Positions 4,628-16,251 of a stretch of 64,000 nucleotides of DNA are shown in pieces (positions within the stretch are counted from its first letter, which is position 1; the number at the start of each line of letters is the position of its first letter). A program made the translations under genes and the position numbers. The notes beneath the pieces were generated by a model. The model had not been told where the DNA came from. It made no database searches and saw only the letters and a program-made list of their open reading frames with translations. Source of the DNA: Pseudobutyrivibrio sp. (GTDB lineage: Bacteria > Bacillota > Clostridia > Lachnospirales > Lachnospiraceae); the NCBI RefSeq assembly GCF_017471675.1, contig NZ_JAFUSK010000031.1, positions 43,593-107,592 of the forward strand, read 5' to 3'.

Positions 4628-5255
4628 AACTAATCGTATCATTCAAATATTCTATCCTATACTTGTATATTTTATTGTCTATCAATTGGGCGTGGCCCTT
4701 TTGATAGATATTATAGGTGATAAATACGGGAAGCTTACATGTCTGCTGATAGCAGGCATTGTTTGCATTATACCCATGTATATCATATTTCAATCTGTGC
4801 CAAAGCTTATACCGGATAAAATAACTGATAGGAATCAGATTATAAAGTATGTGCTCTGGGTTATAGGTGTATGCCTTGCTGGGATTGTTTTAAATGTAAT
4901 ACTTACACAGTTTGGTATTGCAGAATCATCAGAAGGCTTTGAAAGAGCACAGAATACTTTATCAGATGGTAGCTTATTAATAAAAATACTATGTAACTGC
5001 CTTGTAATTCCTATACTAGAGGAACTTTTGCTTCGAGGAATTGTAACAGGTCAGCTATATCTTATGTATGGCCTTATTCCATCTGTTTTTATTTCTTCGA
5101 TTTTTTTTGGAATTCTACACAATAATATAGTACAATTTATATATGCTTTAGTAGTGGGGATTTTACTTGGTCTAATGTACGTTAAAACCAAACGTTTATC
5201 TCTTTGTATAATTACCCATTGCCTTATTAATTTTATCGTAATAATTTTTAGCTAG
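4614..5255 (+). CDS. CPBP-family intramembrane metalloprotease
   Basis: This is a 213-residue, strongly hydrophobic protein with about six to seven membrane segments. The CPBP (CaaX protease/bacteriocin-processing, 'Abi') motifs are visible: E-E-L-L-L-R-G (motif 1, glutamate pair plus Arg), F-F-G-I-L-H (motif 2 His) and I-I-T-H-C-L-I-N (motif 3 His/Asn). Family members cleave membrane-embedded peptides, and some confer immunity to or mature bacteriocins. It lies 4 kb from the putative peptide cluster and in another operon, so a link is only speculation. The best start is TTG at 4614, inside the end of the HAD gene; its ribosome binding site is weak (GAGG about 13 bases upstream). Confidence 0.8.
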   Translation: MKQIKTNRIIQIFYPILVYFIVYQLGVALLIDIIGDKYGKLTCLLIAGIVCIIPMYIIFQSVPKLIPDKITDRNQIIKYVLWVIGVCLAGIVLNVILTQFGIAESSEGFERAQNTLSDGSLLIKILCNCLVIPILEELLLRGIVTGQLYLMYGLIPSVFISSIFFGILHNNIVQFIYALVVGILLGLMYVKTKRLSLCIITHCLINFIVIIFS

Positions 5256-5278
5256 AATAAAGCAAATAGGAGGATACT

Positions 5279-6016
5279 ATGGCTCAAAACATACAAGAAA
5301 TCAAAGAATCAAAGGCAGGGCTTGCTGCTAATATCATCGGAGCAATTGCATTTTTGGCACTTGGTATTTGTCTAGTGACACTTGATGTAAGCTTTATAGC
5401 TCGGATTATTTACTCATTTTCTATCCTTGCCATTGGCATTTTGTTTATATGCTTTGGTATGTATTACATGATTAAATACTTCTTTAATCACGAATATGTT
5501 AGGATTACAAGCTATGGATTTACCATGGGTGTTATTCTTGTAATTATTGGCGCTACATTTATTATCAACGCAGGCACTGTTTCTGCATTTATCGATGCAT
5601 TGGTTTGCCTTATAGGTATTGTTTTTGGAGCTGTTATGCTTCAGCAATCTTTCGCACTGTTTCATATACAAAGAGGCTCATGGTTTATAAGCCTTCTTCT
5701 TGGGATAGCAACCATAGCTGCAAGCATTTATATTCTTCTTACTCCATTAAAGATATTTGATGGCGCTATTTTGTCAAGCATTTATCTTATTGTAGTAGGC
5801 GGATTTTCTCTGTTTTCACTGCTTTTAATGGTAATAGGTCTTAATGATCACAAGAAGGATTCAGACAGGATATTTAAGCGTAATATGGAAGAATCACCAA
5901 TTGCTTCTAAGCAAAGGGTGGATGAATCTATTTTTGAGGATGAACCATCTTTTGATGTTAAGGAAGATACAGGCACTCAGCCAAAGGAAGGTAGCGACGA
6001 CTTATTTGAGGAATAG
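5279..6016 (+). CDS. DUF308/HdeD-like multi-pass membrane protein
   Basis: The 245-residue product has six predicted membrane helices in three similar pairs, rich in small residues with G-A-I-A-F-L-A-L-G-I type turns. This resembles the DUF308/HdeD fold. The last 60 residues are hydrophilic and acidic (many Asp/Glu), predicted cytoplasmic. The ATG follows a strong AGGAGG at 5269-5274. Function is unknown; HdeD itself is linked to acid stress in enterobacteria, which should not be transferred here without evidence. It sits between the CPBP protease and an Mbeg1-like hydrolase, with 5 bases to the latter. Confidence 0.65.
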   Translation: MAQNIQEIKESKAGLAANIIGAIAFLALGICLVTLDVSFIARIIYSFSILAIGILFICFGMYYMIKYFFNHEYVRITSYGFTMGVILVIIGATFIINAGTVSAFIDALVCLIGIVFGAVMLQQSFALFHIQRGSWFISLLLGIATIAASIYILLTPLKIFDGAILSSIYLIVVGGFSLFSLLLMVIGLNDHKKDSDRIFKRNMEESPIASKQRVDESIFEDEPSFDVKEDTGTQPKEGSDDLFEE

Positions 6017-9308: not shown

Positions 9309-9333
9309 AATAGAGGATAAGGTGAATATATTA

Positions 9334-9372
9334 AATACTTTCACTGAATGTTCAGTGGAAGTATTTTTTTTT
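9334..9372 (+). terminator. Rho-independent terminator of groESL
   Basis: A 15-base stem (9334-9348 with 9351-9365, one G-U pair) is followed by a run of nine T, 9364-9372. It cleanly separates the heat-shock operon from the peptide cluster. Confidence 0.9.
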
Positions 9373-9465
9373 AGAAATATTATTCATCTAAAACAATAAA
9401 TTTAGTAATTAAAAATTTGCGTTAAAAATTTTTATCAAATATATGAGAAATTAATTAAAAAAATA

Positions 9466-9494
9466 TTGCGCTTAGTGAGGGAAATGTGTAAAAT
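9466..9494 (+). promoter_or_regulatory. Predicted sigma-A promoter of the peptide cluster
   Basis: The -35 is TTGCGC (9466-9471), the spacer is 17 bases and the -10 is TAAAAT (9489-9494). It lies in a very AT-rich stretch between the groEL terminator and the small peptide gene; no operator was recognised. Confidence 0.65.
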
Positions 9495-9519
9495 TACTCA
9501 ACAAAGGAGGTGAAGTGAA

Positions 9520-9645
9520 ATGAAAAAGGAATACAAAAAACCAGAAATGCATTGCATTTTATCTTGGGGTCGTCATGGTTTAATTGTTTCACAACATGAA
9601 TGTGAAAATAGTGATGCCGTAAAGAACCAAGAGAAGGCAGCTTAG
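9520..9645 (+). CDS. Putative RiPP precursor peptide (41 aa)
   Basis: This is a short reading frame found by reading the DNA. It has an excellent AAAGGAGGTG ribosome binding site (9503-9512), ATG at 9520 and stop TAG at 9643-9645. The peptide has a Lys-rich N-terminus with Y5-K-K-P8-E-M10, then a hydrophobic/aromatic stretch (C12, W16-G-R-H19-G-L-I-V), a second Cys (C28) and an acidic/polar tail ending K-A-A. The YxxP element resembles leader motifs bound by PqqD-like recognition domains in other RiPP families, and exactly such a domain is encoded 1.2 kb downstream. Cys12, Cys28, Trp16 and the His residues are candidate modification sites. No Gly-Gly cleavage site is present. That this is a precursor is inference from size, RBS and neighbours; I do not recognise the family. 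Confidence 0.65.
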   Translation: MKKEYKKPEMHCILSWGRHGLIVSQHECENSDAVKNQEKAA

Positions 9646-9663
9646 CTGTACTAATTTTTTACT

Positions 9664-9686
9664 TAGCGCGAATTTAATTCGCGCTA
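9664..9686 (+). promoter_or_regulatory. Perfect hairpin between peptide gene and radical SAM gene
   Basis: Two 11-base arms (9664-9674 and 9676-9686) are perfect complements around one central T, followed only by TATTTGT. It is too weak in T to be a full terminator. It may partly attenuate transcription or protect the short upstream mRNA, so that peptide is made in excess over enzymes, as in many peptide operons. Confidence 0.6.
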
Positions 9687-9709
9687 TATTTGTGCTGGAG
9701 GATATGTAT

Positions 9710-10828
9710 ATGAATGAATATATAAAAAAGCCCTATTATGTGGATTTATCAGTAACACCTTTTTGTAATTTAAAATGTCCTTTTTGTTCTGCTGGTGCGG
9801 CAGGAAGAATGAATGATAGCAAAAAAGCGCCATTTACGCTTAGTAAACTTGAGGATATTTTTAATCAATTAGATGAGAATGATGTTATGCGAGTTAGTTT
9901 AGAAGGTGGAGAACCTTTTACTAGATCAGATATTATAGATGTATTAAATTTAGCAGATAAACACAATTTTTGGTATATGATTAATACAAACGCTACATTG
10001 ATAACAGAGGAATTGGCAAAGAAGATTTCAAAAACTAATGTTGATAAGCTTTGTATTAGCATAGATGGACCAGAAAAAATACATGATTTATCTAGAGGAA
10101 GTGTGGGAAGTTTTAATAAAATGAAAGAAGCTGTGGGATATTTAAATAAATATAATGTTTCTATGGATGGCATCATAACTTTAACTAATATAAATATAGA
10201 CTATTTATTTGAGACACTAGAATTAATAAAAAATATGGGTATTAGTAATGTGGCAATAATGCTATTGGCATCTGTGGGGAAAGCATTTTGCAATAAGCAT
10301 AGCGTGGAAGTTAATTACAATGACTGGAAAAAAGTTTATTTAAAGTTAACTGATTTAAAGAAAGAGGATAAATTACCTGTTAATGTTAATATTGTTCCAA
10401 CAGGAGAAGCAACTCATCCATGGATGCTTTATTTACCATTACATGAAGAACACAGAGAAGATGATTTAAAATTGTTGTTAAGTCCAAGTGCTATTAGTAC
10501 AATTAATAATAATAGATTTGCATGTACTGCGGGAACAGACAATTTTGCTATTGATGGATATGGTAATGTATATGGATGTAGTCTTATGTATACTGAAAAA
10601 GACTTAATAGCAGGTAATGTATATGAAAATTCGATTACAGATATATGGAATAATTCTTCGATATTTAAAAAATTAAGAGAAATAGAAATCGATGATGTAA
10701 AAGGGGATTGTGCTGAATGCGAATTTCTTAGTGTTTGTCGTGGCGGTTGTCGAGTTTGTTCTTATGCAGTTAGTAAGGACTTATATTCCTCAGATGTTCG
10801 ATGCCCAAAATGTGAAAGGAGCTTATAA
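9710..10828 (+). CDS. Radical SAM/SPASM peptide-maturase-like enzyme
   Basis: The chosen start gives 372 residues. The radical SAM cluster motif is C19-N-L-K-C23-P-F-C26, with G-G-E-P at 66-69 for SAM binding. The C-terminal SPASM domain fits the family pattern exactly: C272-x12-G-x4-C290, then C334-x2-C337-x5-C343-x3-C347, and further Cys at 350, 365 and 368, enough for two auxiliary Fe-S clusters. Such enzymes install thioether, C-C or other crosslinks on peptides. I start at ATG 9710 because GGAGG at 9697-9701 is 8 bases upstream; GTG 9692 and ATG 9704 are badly spaced. Leu codons are mostly TTA and many Ile are ATA, unlike groEL. The stop overlaps the next ATG by one base (TAATG). Confidence 0.9.
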   Translation: MNEYIKKPYYVDLSVTPFCNLKCPFCSAGAAGRMNDSKKAPFTLSKLEDIFNQLDENDVMRVSLEGGEPFTRSDIIDVLNLADKHNFWYMINTNATLITEELAKKISKTNVDKLCISIDGPEKIHDLSRGSVGSFNKMKEAVGYLNKYNVSMDGIITLTNINIDYLFETLELIKNMGISNVAIMLLASVGKAFCNKHSVEVNYNDWKKVYLKLTDLKKEDKLPVNVNIVPTGEATHPWMLYLPLHEEHREDDLKLLLSPSAISTINNNRFACTAGTDNFAIDGYGNVYGCSLMYTEKDLIAGNVYENSITDIWNNSSIFKKLREIEIDDVKGDCAECEFLSVCRGGCRVCSYAVSKDLYSSDVRCPKCERSL

Positions 10829-11133
10829 TGGTAAATAAATTAAATCTAGACGAATCATGTAAACCGGTATTTATTAGAAATGACGGTGATCAGTTTATTA
10901 TATCATCAGGATTAGGGTTGAACTCCACAAGTGAGATTGGTGCTAGAATTATGTTGGGCATAAATAACGGTCTCAGCATATTAGAAATAAAGAATGAATT
11001 ATTGGAGACATATGATGTTGAAGAAAAGGATTTATGTTTGGACATGATTGATTTTCTAATATCCCTTAACGAATTACAAATTATTTCAGATAGCAAAGCG
11101 AAATTTTATATTAATGAGTTGAGGTTGGTGTAA
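10828..11133 (+). CDS. PqqD-like RiPP recognition element protein
   Basis: The product is a small 101-residue protein. The pattern L-N-S-T-S-E-I-G-A-R-I, a helix-turn-helix-like N-G-L-S-I-L-E-I-K-N-E-L, a segment ending Y-D-V-E-E-K-D-L, and D-M-I-D-F-L-I-S-L matches the PqqD/RRE fold, a winged-helix domain that binds leader peptides and presents them to the maturase. It overlaps both neighbours by one base (TAATG on each side), so the maturase, this protein and the exporter are translationally coupled. I infer that it binds the 41-residue peptide through its YxxP segment. Confidence 0.75.
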   Translation: MVNKLNLDESCKPVFIRNDGDQFIISSGLGLNSTSEIGARIMLGINNGLSILEIKNELLETYDVEEKDLCLDMIDFLISLNELQIISDSKAKFYINELRLV

Positions 11134-12443
11134 TGGATTTTGATTTAATAAAAAAAATTAATACAATAGCTATTCCTGGGATTCTTTCGACATTATTAAA
11201 TACAATTTTTACCCTTGCTGATGAAGCAATAGTAGGACGATTGGATGTTGATGGATACACAGCAGTTTCTATTTCTGCAAATTTAATATATCAAATTATC
11301 GGAAACATTGGTGTAATATCTATTGTATTTGCGATAATGTTTGCAAAGAGTATAGGCTCTAAAGATGAGAAAAAATGTAATGAAATATATAATTCATTAA
11401 TTACTATATCAAGTATAATAGGAGTTATTATTGTTTTAATGTCTTGCCTCATAGGAAAAACACTTTTAAGACAGATTTATGGAATTTCTGGCTCTATACT
11501 TAATGAAGCACATTTATATCTTTGTATTGCTTCTTTTACAGTTGGATTAAATCTTATTTGTTTTATTATGTCTTCTTTTTTTAAGAATATTTTTAAACCT
11601 CGCATTACTCTTTTGGCAACTGGGCTATCTCTTCCTATAAATTTTTTTGTTGATTACATTTTAGTTTTCGGAAAATTTGGATTTCCTAAAATGCGTGTGG
11701 CTGGAGCTGCTATTGGAACGGTAGTTGGTGTTCTTGTTGAACTTTCAATTTTTATTATTTATTTTGTTAAAGAAAACAAAATTAAGTTTAAATTCTGTAT
11801 TTCATTAGATGTGTTTAGCAATGCTATAAAGATGTTTATTCCTTTACTAGGACAAGATATAATTGAAAACACACTGTTTATAATAATTGTTGGAGCAATT
11901 ATTACAAGATATAGTACGGCTTTATTTGCATCATATTCTGTGATTGTAGCTATAATTACGAGCATAAATATAATTATATATGCATACGCGGGCGCCACTA
12001 TGACTATAGTGGGGCAATCTTTTTCGGATAAAGATAAAAGAAAAAAATGCCTTATTATACCTCTGTATACTTCTATATTGATATTAATAATATATTTACC
12101 ACTATTGATATGCTCGTTTTTATTTCCAAATCAAATTTGCGGATTGATAACTAATCAAAGTTTGATTATTAACACTGCTGTATCGATTTTATCTTTTGCT
12201 TTTATAATGAATTTACTTAATATTCCGTGTCAGGTATATAAGTATGCATTGCAATCAATGGGAAAAGAAAGATACACTTTCGTTTCTACAGGAGTATCAT
12301 CGGTTATTTCATGTTTATGCTTATATATATTTGTGGATTATTTTAAACTAGAATTATATGGCGTTTTTTGTGCTTATGGCATATTGTATGTAATACTTAA
12401 TATATTATTTATTAAAAAATATATTTATGCTCTTCGGCAATGA
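11133..12443 (+). CDS. MATE-family transporter, candidate peptide exporter
   Basis: This 436-residue membrane protein has about 12 helices in two homologous bundles, starting at an N-terminal L-A-D-E-A-I-V-G-R-L stretch typical of MATE (multidrug and toxin extrusion) antiporters, which use Na+ or H+ gradients. It is coupled to the PqqD-like gene by TAATG. As the only transporter in the cluster it is the obvious candidate to export or give resistance to the product. That is unusual, because most peptide clusters use ABC transporters with a peptidase domain. Very AT-rich codon use continues to its end. Confidence 0.85.
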   Translation: MDFDLIKKINTIAIPGILSTLLNTIFTLADEAIVGRLDVDGYTAVSISANLIYQIIGNIGVISIVFAIMFAKSIGSKDEKKCNEIYNSLITISSIIGVIIVLMSCLIGKTLLRQIYGISGSILNEAHLYLCIASFTVGLNLICFIMSSFFKNIFKPRITLLATGLSLPINFFVDYILVFGKFGFPKMRVAGAAIGTVVGVLVELSIFIIYFVKENKIKFKFCISLDVFSNAIKMFIPLLGQDIIENTLFIIIVGAIITRYSTALFASYSVIVAIITSINIIIYAYAGATMTIVGQSFSDKDKRKKCLIIPLYTSILILIIYLPLLICSFLFPNQICGLITNQSLIINTAVSILSFAFIMNLLNIPCQVYKYALQSMGKERYTFVSTGVSSVISCLCLYIFVDYFKLELYGVFCAYGILYVILNILFIKKYIYALRQ

Positions 12444-12468
12444 TTGTATTTCTTTTAGTTATTAATTG

Positions 12469-12477
12469 TGTTAAAAT
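12469..12477 (+). promoter_or_regulatory. Possible extended -10 promoter of degV
   Basis: TGTTAAAAT has the TGn extension directly before TAAAAT, 36 bases before the degV start. No good -35 is found at 16-18 bases, so this is tentative. Confidence 0.35.
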
Positions 12478-12512
12478 ATCACTTGCGTTTAAATTAGTAG
12501 TTGAGGTGAATT

Positions 12513-14830: not shown

Positions 14831-15508
14831 ATGTGGTCAATTGGTGAAATTAAAGCAAGAGGTAAGGCGGCATTTAAGGCAAACTATTGGAACTCTGTTA
14901 TAGTTGCATTTATACTATCAATATTAACAGCAGGTTCTTCAGTTGCAACAAGAAATCAGACAGGTTCTGAGGATGTGCAAGAAAGCTTACTTGCAGCTGA
15001 TCCGATGGTATTGCAAATTATAGCAGGCGGATTATTTGCCATCATGATTGTATCTTTATTGCTTAGAATTTTTATTTTTAATCCACTTCAGGTTGGAGGT
15101 TATCAATTTTTTAAAAAGAATGTGACAGAAGGGCATGCAACTCTTGGTACAATAGGTGAGGGCTTCAGTGGATATGGACATACTTTTATTACATTGTTAC
15201 TTAGAGATATATTTTTAGCTTTATGGTGCTGTTTATTTGTGATTCCGGGATTAATAAAGAGCTATTCATATAGAATGGTTCCATATATTATAAAAGATAA
15301 TCCAGAGCTTTCTGCTACAGAGGTTATTACAAAATCTAGAAAGATGATGGATGGACATAAATGGCGTGCATTCTTGCTTGATTTGTCATTTATCGGATGG
15401 CTGCTTCTTTCTTTAGTCACACTTGGCATTGTGGGATTATTATGGACTAATCCTTATATGCAAAATACTAATGCTGCATTATATCAGGAATTATCTAAGA
15501 ATAATTAG
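14831..15508 (+). CDS. DUF975-family membrane protein
   Basis: The product has 225 residues and about five membrane helices. The opening W-S-I-G-E-I-K-A-R-G-K and N-Y-W-N-S-V-I-V, and the later G-Y-G-H-T-F-I-T-L-L-L-R-D-I-F and S-R-K-M-M-D-G-H-K-W-R-A-F motifs, mark the DUF975 family, common in Firmicutes and of unknown function. I place the start at ATG 14831, after AAAGGAGGG at 14817-14825, and not at the upstream in-frame ATG 14804, which has no ribosome binding site. A TATAAT at 14779-14784 may be its -10, without a clear -35. Its own terminator follows, so it is likely monocistronic. Confidence 0.8.
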   Translation: MWSIGEIKARGKAAFKANYWNSVIVAFILSILTAGSSVATRNQTGSEDVQESLLAADPMVLQIIAGGLFAIMIVSLLLRIFIFNPLQVGGYQFFKKNVTEGHATLGTIGEGFSGYGHTFITLLLRDIFLALWCCLFVIPGLIKSYSYRMVPYIIKDNPELSATEVITKSRKMMDGHKWRAFLLDLSFIGWLLLSLVTLGIVGLLWTNPYMQNTNAALYQELSKNN

Positions 15509-15531
15509 TGTTAAAAATTATGGACATAATT

Positions 15532-15569
15532 AAAAAAGACCTTAGTCATAAAAGATTGAGGTCTTTTTT
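15532..15569 (+). terminator. Rho-independent terminator after the DUF975 gene
   Basis: The 16-base A-start/T-end stem (15532-15547 with 15554-15569) has a 6-base loop and ends in six T. Confidence 0.9.
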
Positions 15570-15648
15570 ATAATTAGAGTTATTAATTTAGGAATTAAAT
15601 TTTTATATTTCTGATTAGGAAAGTAAGGCTGTATTTAAGGAGAAAGTG

Positions 15649-16251
15649 ATGAAAGCTTTTATTTTAAAATATTACAAATTGTTAATTCTATTGATAGCTA
15701 TTGGATTGTTAGCTGTTTTTTTACTAATCACCTTTAACCACAAATCTCCAGCAAAAATGATTAAGGACTCTCAATCCAGCCATGAATCTGCCAAAATTCT
15801 TGATGAAGCAAGTGAAATTGAGGATGAAGGGGAATATGTAATCAAAATGGATAAAAACGAAGTATATAGCTTTCAGATGACAGACAATAAGGATATAATT
15901 CTTAATTTTGAGAGGAAAGCTGATAAGTGGATTTATTCTGATGATACATCTATTGAACTGAATCAAGAGAGAGTTGATAAAATATTAAATTACCTTACTG
16001 ATGTAAGATTTTTGAATGTTATTGCTTTAGGGGATGATAAGGAAAGTGACAGCTATGGGCTAAATCAGGATTCTCCTGTTTATGTAATAAAAGATGCTAA
16101 CGATTATTCTACTTATATATCCCTTGGCACTGTTGATGAAAAAACAGGGCAGGTATATTTTGCTTTAAATTATGATTTTTCCAATATATATGTTAATAGT
16201 GGAAAGCTGGCTGGCCTGCATTATTATTCTATTACAGATTTGGTTCAATAA
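15649..16251 (+). CDS. Membrane-anchored DUF4340-like protein
   Basis: The product has 200 residues with one N-terminal membrane helix (residues about 9-27) and an extracytoplasmic domain. The pattern E-R-K-A-D-K-W-I-Y-S, V-D-K-I-L-N-Y-L, then Y-G-L-N-Q-D-S-P-V-Y-V-I-K resembles DUF4340, a beta-rich domain usually found with gliding/ABC-export complexes; here no such partner is adjacent and the function is unknown. AAGGAG at 15637-15642 is 6 bases before ATG 15649, which I prefer to GTG 15646. It appears to be a single-gene unit between a terminator and the rpsO promoter. Confidence 0.6.
   Translation: MKAFILKYYKLLILLIAIGLLAVFLLITFNHKSPAKMIKDSQSSHESAKILDEASEIEDEGEYVIKMDKNEVYSFQMTDNKDIILNFERKADKWIYSDDTSIELNQERVDKILNYLTDVRFLNVIALGDDKESDSYGLNQDSPVYVIKDANDYSTYISLGTVDEKTGQVYFALNYDFSNIYVNSGKLAGLHYYSITDLVQ

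What the first reader, a model, noticed from the sequence alone, without database searches (positions are those of the whole stretch)
9466..12443. A compact, apparently undescribed RiPP cluster: 41-residue peptide, radical SAM/SPASM enzyme, PqqD-like protein, MATE exporter
Seen: a 41-codon frame with a near-perfect ribosome binding site, its own promoter, and three coupled genes (TAATG overlaps). Known: SPASM enzymes with the CX2CX5CX3C pattern plus a PqqD-like protein mature leader-containing peptides. Inferred: peptide excess set by a hairpin, leader recognition through Y5-K-K-P8, crosslinking in the C12-to-C28 segment, export by MATE. I cannot name the family, and no peptidase is encoded.
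Basis: partly seen in the sequence, partly recalled or inferred. Interest (0 to 1): 0.9.

Follow-up and report, generated by a model that had tools for sequence, protein, structure and literature searches.

The report
Tryglysin-like peptide cluster with arginine swap
A bacterium carries a four-gene kit resembling the one streptococci use to make the small antibacterial peptide tryglysin, but in its peptide the lysine that is normally welded to a tryptophan is an arginine, so it may make a related ring of a kind not yet described.

Summary
The cluster is real and intact: a 41-residue peptide, a radical SAM/SPASM enzyme, a PqqD-like protein and a MATE exporter. It is not family-less. Each gene has the streptococcal tryglysin operon wgkA-B-C-D as best NCBIfam match, in the same order, though all four scores lie below the curated cut-offs. 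The peptide reads ...ILSWGRHGLIV...; tryglysin A is VNSWGKH. Two related loci encode peptides with the same layout, Y-x-x-P, seven residues, W-G-K: MKYEQPIVETFVAWGKC (G410) and MKRTKKYDKPIIKFIACWGKCHQVIA (G918). Y..P.{7}WG[KR] occurs in 3 of 22,215 small reading frames of the held sequence, each time just upstream of a WgkB-like gene. Differences from tryglysin: Arg replaces the crosslinked Lys, a 22-residue tail follows the core, and no Rgg regulator was found in the genome. The cluster lies between groEL and degV in 1 of 29 genus genomes; in 23 of 26 relatives these genes are neighbours. Most likely a WgkB-type enzyme welds Trp16 to Arg18 with loss of 4 Da; this chemistry is inferred, not shown. 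New variant of a known kind.

The parts
9333..9366 (+). terminator-like hairpin after groEL, inside the inserted stretch
   Evidence: 15-pair stem with a T run; z -3.48; the nearest relatives have a different hairpin here
9466..9494 (+). possible weak promoter TTGCGC-17-TAAAAT with extended -10
   Evidence: seen by eye only; the sigma-70 scan did not report it
9506..9510 (+). ribosome binding site GGAGG of the peptide gene
   Evidence: sequence
9520..9645 (+). wgkA-like precursor, 41 aa; leader with Y5-K-K-P8, core S15-W16-G17-R18-H19, 22-residue tail
   Evidence: NF050036 tryglysin_RiPP residues 1-19, 13.8 bits, E 0.064, cut-off 34; same Y..P.{7}WG[KR] layout in two related loci; single copy in the own genome
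9565..9573 (+). codons of Trp16-Gly17-Arg18, the predicted crosslink site
   Evidence: comparison with tryglysin A VNSWGKH and with the peptides of G410 and G918
9664..9686 (+). hairpin between precursor and maturase gene
   Evidence: 10-pair stem; hairpins at the matching place in the four other loci folded
9710..10828 (+). WgkB-like radical SAM/SPASM maturase (372 aa from ATG 9710; GGAGG 9697-9701; the searches used the frame from 9704)
   Evidence: NF050035 308.7 bits, next family 152.9; CX3CX2C and seven SPASM Cys; tree
10828..11133 (+). WgkC-like PqqD-type protein, probable leader-binding RRE (101 aa)
   Evidence: NF050069 30.1 bits, E 3.7e-7; PF05402 21.4 bits, just under its cut-off 23.4
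11133..12443 (+). WgkD-like MATE exporter (436 aa)
   Evidence: NF052396 254.1 bits, cut-off 510; PF01554
9312..12502 (.). stretch between groEL and degV that relatives lack (approximate ends)

Best explanation
A tryglysin-type (wgkABCD-like) RiPP operon, probably acquired horizontally, with a natural Lys-to-Arg change at the crosslinked residue. The PqqD-like RRE protein binds the YKKP leader. The WgkB-like enzyme abstracts hydrogen from Arg18 and joins it to the indole of Trp16, most likely by two C-C bonds (Arg C-alpha to Trp C5, Arg C-delta to Trp C6), losing 4 H. Housekeeping proteases then trim leader and tail, and the MATE protein exports a small antibacterial or signalling peptide. Shown here: sequence relation of all four genes to the wgk models, gene order, leader-to-Trp spacing shared with two loci, the W-G-R motif, absence of the stretch from relatives. 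Inferred: leader binding, bond positions, -4 Da, trimming, export, activity and the horizontal route.
For: Four of four genes have the tryglysin models as best NCBIfam hit, and for the peptide it is the only one at E<=1. Closest enzyme found: the broken G918 maturase, 46% and 57% identity over its two pieces, grouped with the window enzyme at 99/98 support; its peptide scores 19.5 bits, E 0.001, for tryglysin_RiPP. G410, 34% identical, has MKYEQPIVETFVAWGKC; its RRE and MATE pass the WgkC and WgkD cut-offs and its maturase reaches 621.8 of 650. P-to-W distance is 8 in all three peptides; Y..P.{7}WG[KR] occurs in 3 of 22,215 small reading frames, the three at WgkB-like genes. Tryglysin A is VNSWGKH with a -4 Da change. 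Linkages in the literature: Trp C5-Lys C-alpha and Trp C6-Lys C-delta (PMC8326336 passage). Arg has the same C-alpha to C-delta chain, and RrrB couples Arg C-delta to a tyrosine ring (PMC8326336 passage; PMC7670169 text passage, whose figure legend says Lys instead), so the chemistry is possible.
Against: All four scores are under the curated cut-offs: 308.7/650, 30.1/110, 254.1/510, 13.8/34. WgkB is also the best model for enzymes whose small upstream ORFs lack WG (199.4 bits in G730, 182.1 in G966, 177.6 in G1505), so a best hit alone proves little. Support for one clade of the three WG[KR] enzymes is only 87/57. The 22-residue tail has no counterpart in tryglysin. No second WGR peptide was found in what was searched. 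The pattern counted was framed after the three peptides had been seen.
Confidence: 0.68

Rival explanations
1. Same operon type, but only one Trp-Arg C-C bond (-2 Da) or an Arg-only change such as desaturation or hydroxylation.
For: Streptide enzymes form a single Lys-Trp bond (passages); Arg has nitrogen on C-delta, unlike Lys.
Against: The nearest characterised enzyme, WgkB, makes two bonds (passages).
Confidence: 0.17
2. A thioether (sactipeptide or ranthipeptide) maturase acting on Cys12 and/or Cys28.
For: Two Cys in the peptide; the G918 and G410 peptides also hold Cys near the Trp.
Against: StsB sactipeptide and PapB ranthipeptide models score 115.9 and 96.2 bits against 308.7 for WgkB. 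Cys positions differ between the three peptides, W-G-[KR] does not. The tryglysin A core has no Cys.
Confidence: 0.06
3. A decaying or non-functional copy, the Arg and the tail being drift.
For: The G918 relative is broken; no Rgg was found in the window's genome; 1 of 29 genus genomes carries the cluster.
Against: All four window frames are open with good ribosome sites or translational overlaps, and all seven SPASM Cys are present.
Confidence: 0.08
4. Not a RiPP system: a sulfatase maturase or another cofactor-type SPASM enzyme with a chance ORF upstream.
For: SPASM-like matches are common in these genomes (57 of 61 genomes at E<=0.001).
Against: Sulfatase maturase model 79.2 bits; the upstream peptide layout recurs in two related loci; a PqqD-like gene overlaps it.
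Confidence: 0.01

Closest known systems
Tryglysin (WGK) system wgkABCD of Streptococcus mutans / S. ferus
   Same: Gene order peptide, radical SAM/SPASM, RRE, transporter; best NCBIfam model for each gene; SWG-basic-H core (VNSWGKH against ILSWGRH).
   Different: Arg for Lys; 41 aa precursor with a 22-residue tail instead of 21 aa ending in WGKH; no Rgg found in the genome; scores far below the curated cut-offs. Compared only through models and papers, not sequence to sequence.
   Same: Peptide MKYEQPIVETFVAWGKC with the same P-to-W spacing; RRE, MATE, hairpin.
   Different: WGK, no tail, 34% identical enzyme; nearly full tryglysin scores.
G918 wgk-like cluster (same family as G410, found here)
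   Same: Closest enzyme (46-57% over two pieces); same peptide layout; short tail HQVIA.
   Different: WGK; maturase and MATE genes are broken.
Ryptides (RrrB) and streptide (StrB/SuiB)
   Same: SPASM enzymes that join a basic residue to an aromatic ring (passages).
   Different: Arg-Tyr, or a single Lys-Trp bond; other precursor motifs (RRR, KxxxW).

Membership tests
Tryglysin / WGK RaS-RiPP | wgkA-B-C-D gene order with MATE exporter | tested here: met
Tryglysin / WGK RaS-RiPP | core motif W-G-K | tested here: not met
   W-G-R in the window
Tryglysin / WGK RaS-RiPP | maturase above the NF050035 WgkB cut-off (650 bits) | tested here: not met
   308.7 bits, but best family by a factor of two
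Tryglysin / WGK RaS-RiPP | WgkC, WgkD and tryglysin_RiPP cut-offs | tested here: not met
   30.1/110, 254.1/510, 13.8/34
Tryglysin / WGK RaS-RiPP | enzyme groups with enzymes that have WGK peptides | tested here: inconclusive
   with G918 99/98; with G918 and G410 87/57; no streptococcal WgkB could be included
Tryglysin / WGK RaS-RiPP | Rgg/SHP regulator | tested here: not met
   0 matches to TIGR01716 at E<=1 in the own genome, 98% complete; SHP peptides were not searched for
Tryglysin / WGK RaS-RiPP | tetrahydro[5,6]benzindole crosslink, -4 Da | not testable with these tools
   needs mass spectrometry and NMR
SPASM peptide maturases | CX3CX2C plus seven SPASM cysteines | tested here: met
   window C21, C25, C28 and C274, C292, C336, C339, C345, C349, C367, numbered from 9704
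RRE / PqqD | PqqD-like sequence | tested here: inconclusive
   PF05402 21.4 bits against 23.4; WgkC E 3.7e-7; structure prediction never ran
anaerobic sulfatase maturase | TIGR03942 cut-off | tested here: not met
   79.2 of 349.45 bits

The most novel reading that the evidence does not exclude
A natural WGR branch of the tryglysin family whose enzyme builds an arginine-derived tetrahydro[5,6]benzindole: the same six-membered carbocycle fused to the Trp indole, carrying a guanidino group where tryglysin carries an aminomethyl group, and placed inside a longer precursor instead of at its C-terminus.
Probability: 0.45. Interest if true: 0.7.

Novelty: new variant of a known kind. Interest (0 to 1): 0.56.

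Why it matters
In the passages read here tryglysin is described from streptococci, apart from a metagenome survey that lists a tryglysin B cluster in primate guts. This cluster and the two related loci take the operon type into Clostridia, and in the window's genome it occurs without a detectable Rgg. As the Hungate1000 paper prints it, its RaS-RiPP detection rule is PF04055 and TIGR01716 together (passage), so a cluster without an Rgg neighbour would be passed over. If the enzyme accepts Arg, it gives a natural lysine/arginine pair of enzymes for asking how a SPASM enzyme picks its carbons, and a guanidino version of a scaffold that stops several streptococci at 100 nM (passage).

Tried and rejected
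Rejected: sulfatase maturase, sactipeptide and ranthipeptide readings (model scores). The wider idea that every WgkB-like enzyme has a W-x-[KR] peptide (WKK in G730, WNK in G966, WSK in G1505) is only a lead: spacing and leader differ, I picked those peptides by eye, and the six enzymes are not one clade in the best tree, though one clade is not rejected either (AU p 0.123).

So no streptococcal Wgk protein was compared directly, only through NCBIfam models and papers. Structure prediction of the RRE never started. The Clark and Seyedsayamdost 2022 atlas, which may list WGR, is not held.
Full report
What is there. Four intact genes lie between groEL and degV: a 41-aa peptide (9520-9645), a radical SAM/SPASM enzyme (9710-10828; searched from 9704), a PqqD-like protein (10828-11133) and a MATE transporter (11133-12443), with TAATG overlaps at the last two junctions.

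What family. NCBIfam names all four after tryglysin as best hit: WgkB 308.7 bits (next best 152.9), WgkC 30.1, WgkD 254.1, tryglysin_RiPP 13.8 bits over residues 1-19 (E 0.064). All are below the curated cut-offs. Pfam agrees on radical SAM, SPASM and MatE; PqqD is just under threshold. In paper passages, S. mutans wgkA encodes a 21-aa peptide followed by wgkB, wgkC and wgkD (PMC8092268); tryglysin A is VNSWGKH with -4 Da (same paper). The window peptide reads ILSWGRH at the matching place. It has a single copy in the own genome.

Relatives. A plain protein search of 61 genomes found nothing nearer than 27% identity outside the own genome. Searches with the WgkB model: 2 of 391 class genomes at E<=1e-60 (own and G410), 2 of 397 family genomes at 1e-45 (own and G730), 3 of 206 genomes of G410's family at 1e-50 (G410, G918, G966), 1 of 398 phylum genomes at 1e-50 (own), 1 of 29 genus genomes at 1e-40 (own). 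With an alignment of the window enzyme and relatives: 2 of 325 order genomes at 1e-60 (own and G1505). These sets overlap, were drawn from larger groups except for the two smallest, and the thresholds differ. G410 has peptide MKYEQPIVETFVAWGKC and G918 has MKRTKKYDKPIIKFIACWGKCHQVIA, both just before their WgkB-like gene. No WG peptide was found at G730, G966 and G1505. G410's RRE and MATE pass the tryglysin cut-offs and its maturase reaches 621.8 of 650, so G410 stands in for the described family.

Is the resemblance more than chance? In the held sequence (1,306,710 bases, eight duplicate loci left out), 22,215 small reading frames of 14-70 aa (inner starts of longer frames included) were examined. 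Y..P.{7}WG[KR] occurs in three, all with a ribosome site and all just upstream of a WgkB-like gene; Y..P.{7}W.[KR] gives the same three. The pattern was framed after seeing the peptides, and some overlapping loci remained in the set. Shuffling the window peptide gave WG[KR][HC] anywhere in 1,081 of 1,000,000.

Tree. With 36 SPASM proteins, the window enzyme groups with the G918 piece (99/98), then G410 (87/57, weak), then G730 (99/98). Of the other rows, 28 came from the 80 loci, chosen by me, and four are the first and second enzymes of G966 and G1505. No streptococcal WgkB and no named sulfatase maturase was in the tree.

Insertion. Six relatives were fetched; in all six, groEL and degV are joined by a spacer of about 30 to 830 bases (between alignment ends) without the cluster; in the nearest one it is 80 bases, with 95% DNA identity upstream. 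Of the 26 relatives with a degV locus held, 23 have groEL 86-862 bases upstream and no maturase match in the locus; 3 were not informative (two contig ends, one with another gene there). The hairpin that follows groEL in the nearest relatives is missing here and another stands in its place. The inserted stretch has 26-33% G+C against 38-45% in groEL and degV, but other genes of the window are as low (27% at 15501-16000, 31% at 5001-5500), so composition is weak evidence. G918 has a resolvase, G730 a transposase and G410 an integrase fragment (just under Pfam's cut-off) nearby, which fits mobility.

How it works. Inferred from the described system: the RRE holds the leader, and the enzyme joins Trp16 to the residue two positions on. 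In tryglysin the bonds are Trp C5 to Lys C-alpha and Trp C6 to Lys C-delta (PMC8326336, passage). Arginine has the same carbons up to C-delta, so the same six-membered ring could close. A -4H shift is therefore the leading guess and -2H the main rival. My mass arithmetic gives 823.385 for tryglysin A against 823.3868 reported. Each of the five gaps between small ORF and enzyme gene that were folded holds a hairpin (z -2.66 to -5.59; the window's gave z -2.01 over a slightly longer stretch); it may set the peptide-to-enzyme ratio, which is not tested.

Differences from tryglysin. Arg for Lys; a 22-residue tail (none in tryglysin and G410, five residues in G918); no Rgg match in the own genome, while S. 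mutans wgk is under an Rgg. I therefore do not file it as a tryglysin system: it most likely works like one and is a divergent WGR relative.

Print. The one search that held WGR as a term (15 of 30 papers listed) showed WGR only in an oncology paper. The searches for tryglysin (21 of 22 listed), wgkB (one listed), tetrahydro/benzindole/WGK (20 of 197), RaS-RiPP with Lachnospiraceae terms (20 of 671), rumen RiPP terms (15 of 61) and tryglysin with arginine and Clostridia (2 of 3) were judged by titles, counts and abstract starts; none pointed to a WGR core. Passages of nine papers were seen, none read whole. A 2026 review names 16 streptococcal subfamilies including WGK and not WGR (PMC13361665, passages). 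Most subscription papers were not searchable.

Host.

Noticed in passing
L116:1313-4097 and L167:1150-4083: Another apparent RiPP family: radical SAM, PqqD-like, radical SAM, preceded by related peptides MMKWNKPVYKIYNNRWLCWNKKSSITIL and MTRKWIKPGFKKYSNRWLCWSKQSPGGGV. The peptides match no NCBIfam model at E<=1; the first enzymes score 182 and 178 bits for WgkB, little more than for other families.
   Followed up: partly
L164:3995-13351 (Acetivibrio ethanolgignens, L035/L034): WgkB-like enzyme plus WgkC-like protein, a B12-type radical SAM and ABC-type transporter genes next to a transposase; the small ORF upstream of the enzyme ends in CWKKE.
   Followed up: partly
L165:180-2914: A broken wgk-like cluster in G918: maturase in two frames, MATE cut short, next to a resolvase.
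   Followed up: yes
L163:10280-17994: The G410 cluster lies among ABC transporter genes, one of them MacB/FtsX-like by Pfam, with an integrase fragment.
   Followed up: partly
window 9312-12502: The groEL-degV gap varies within the genus: some relatives hold spacers of up to about 860 bases and one has an unrelated gene before degV.
   Followed up: partly
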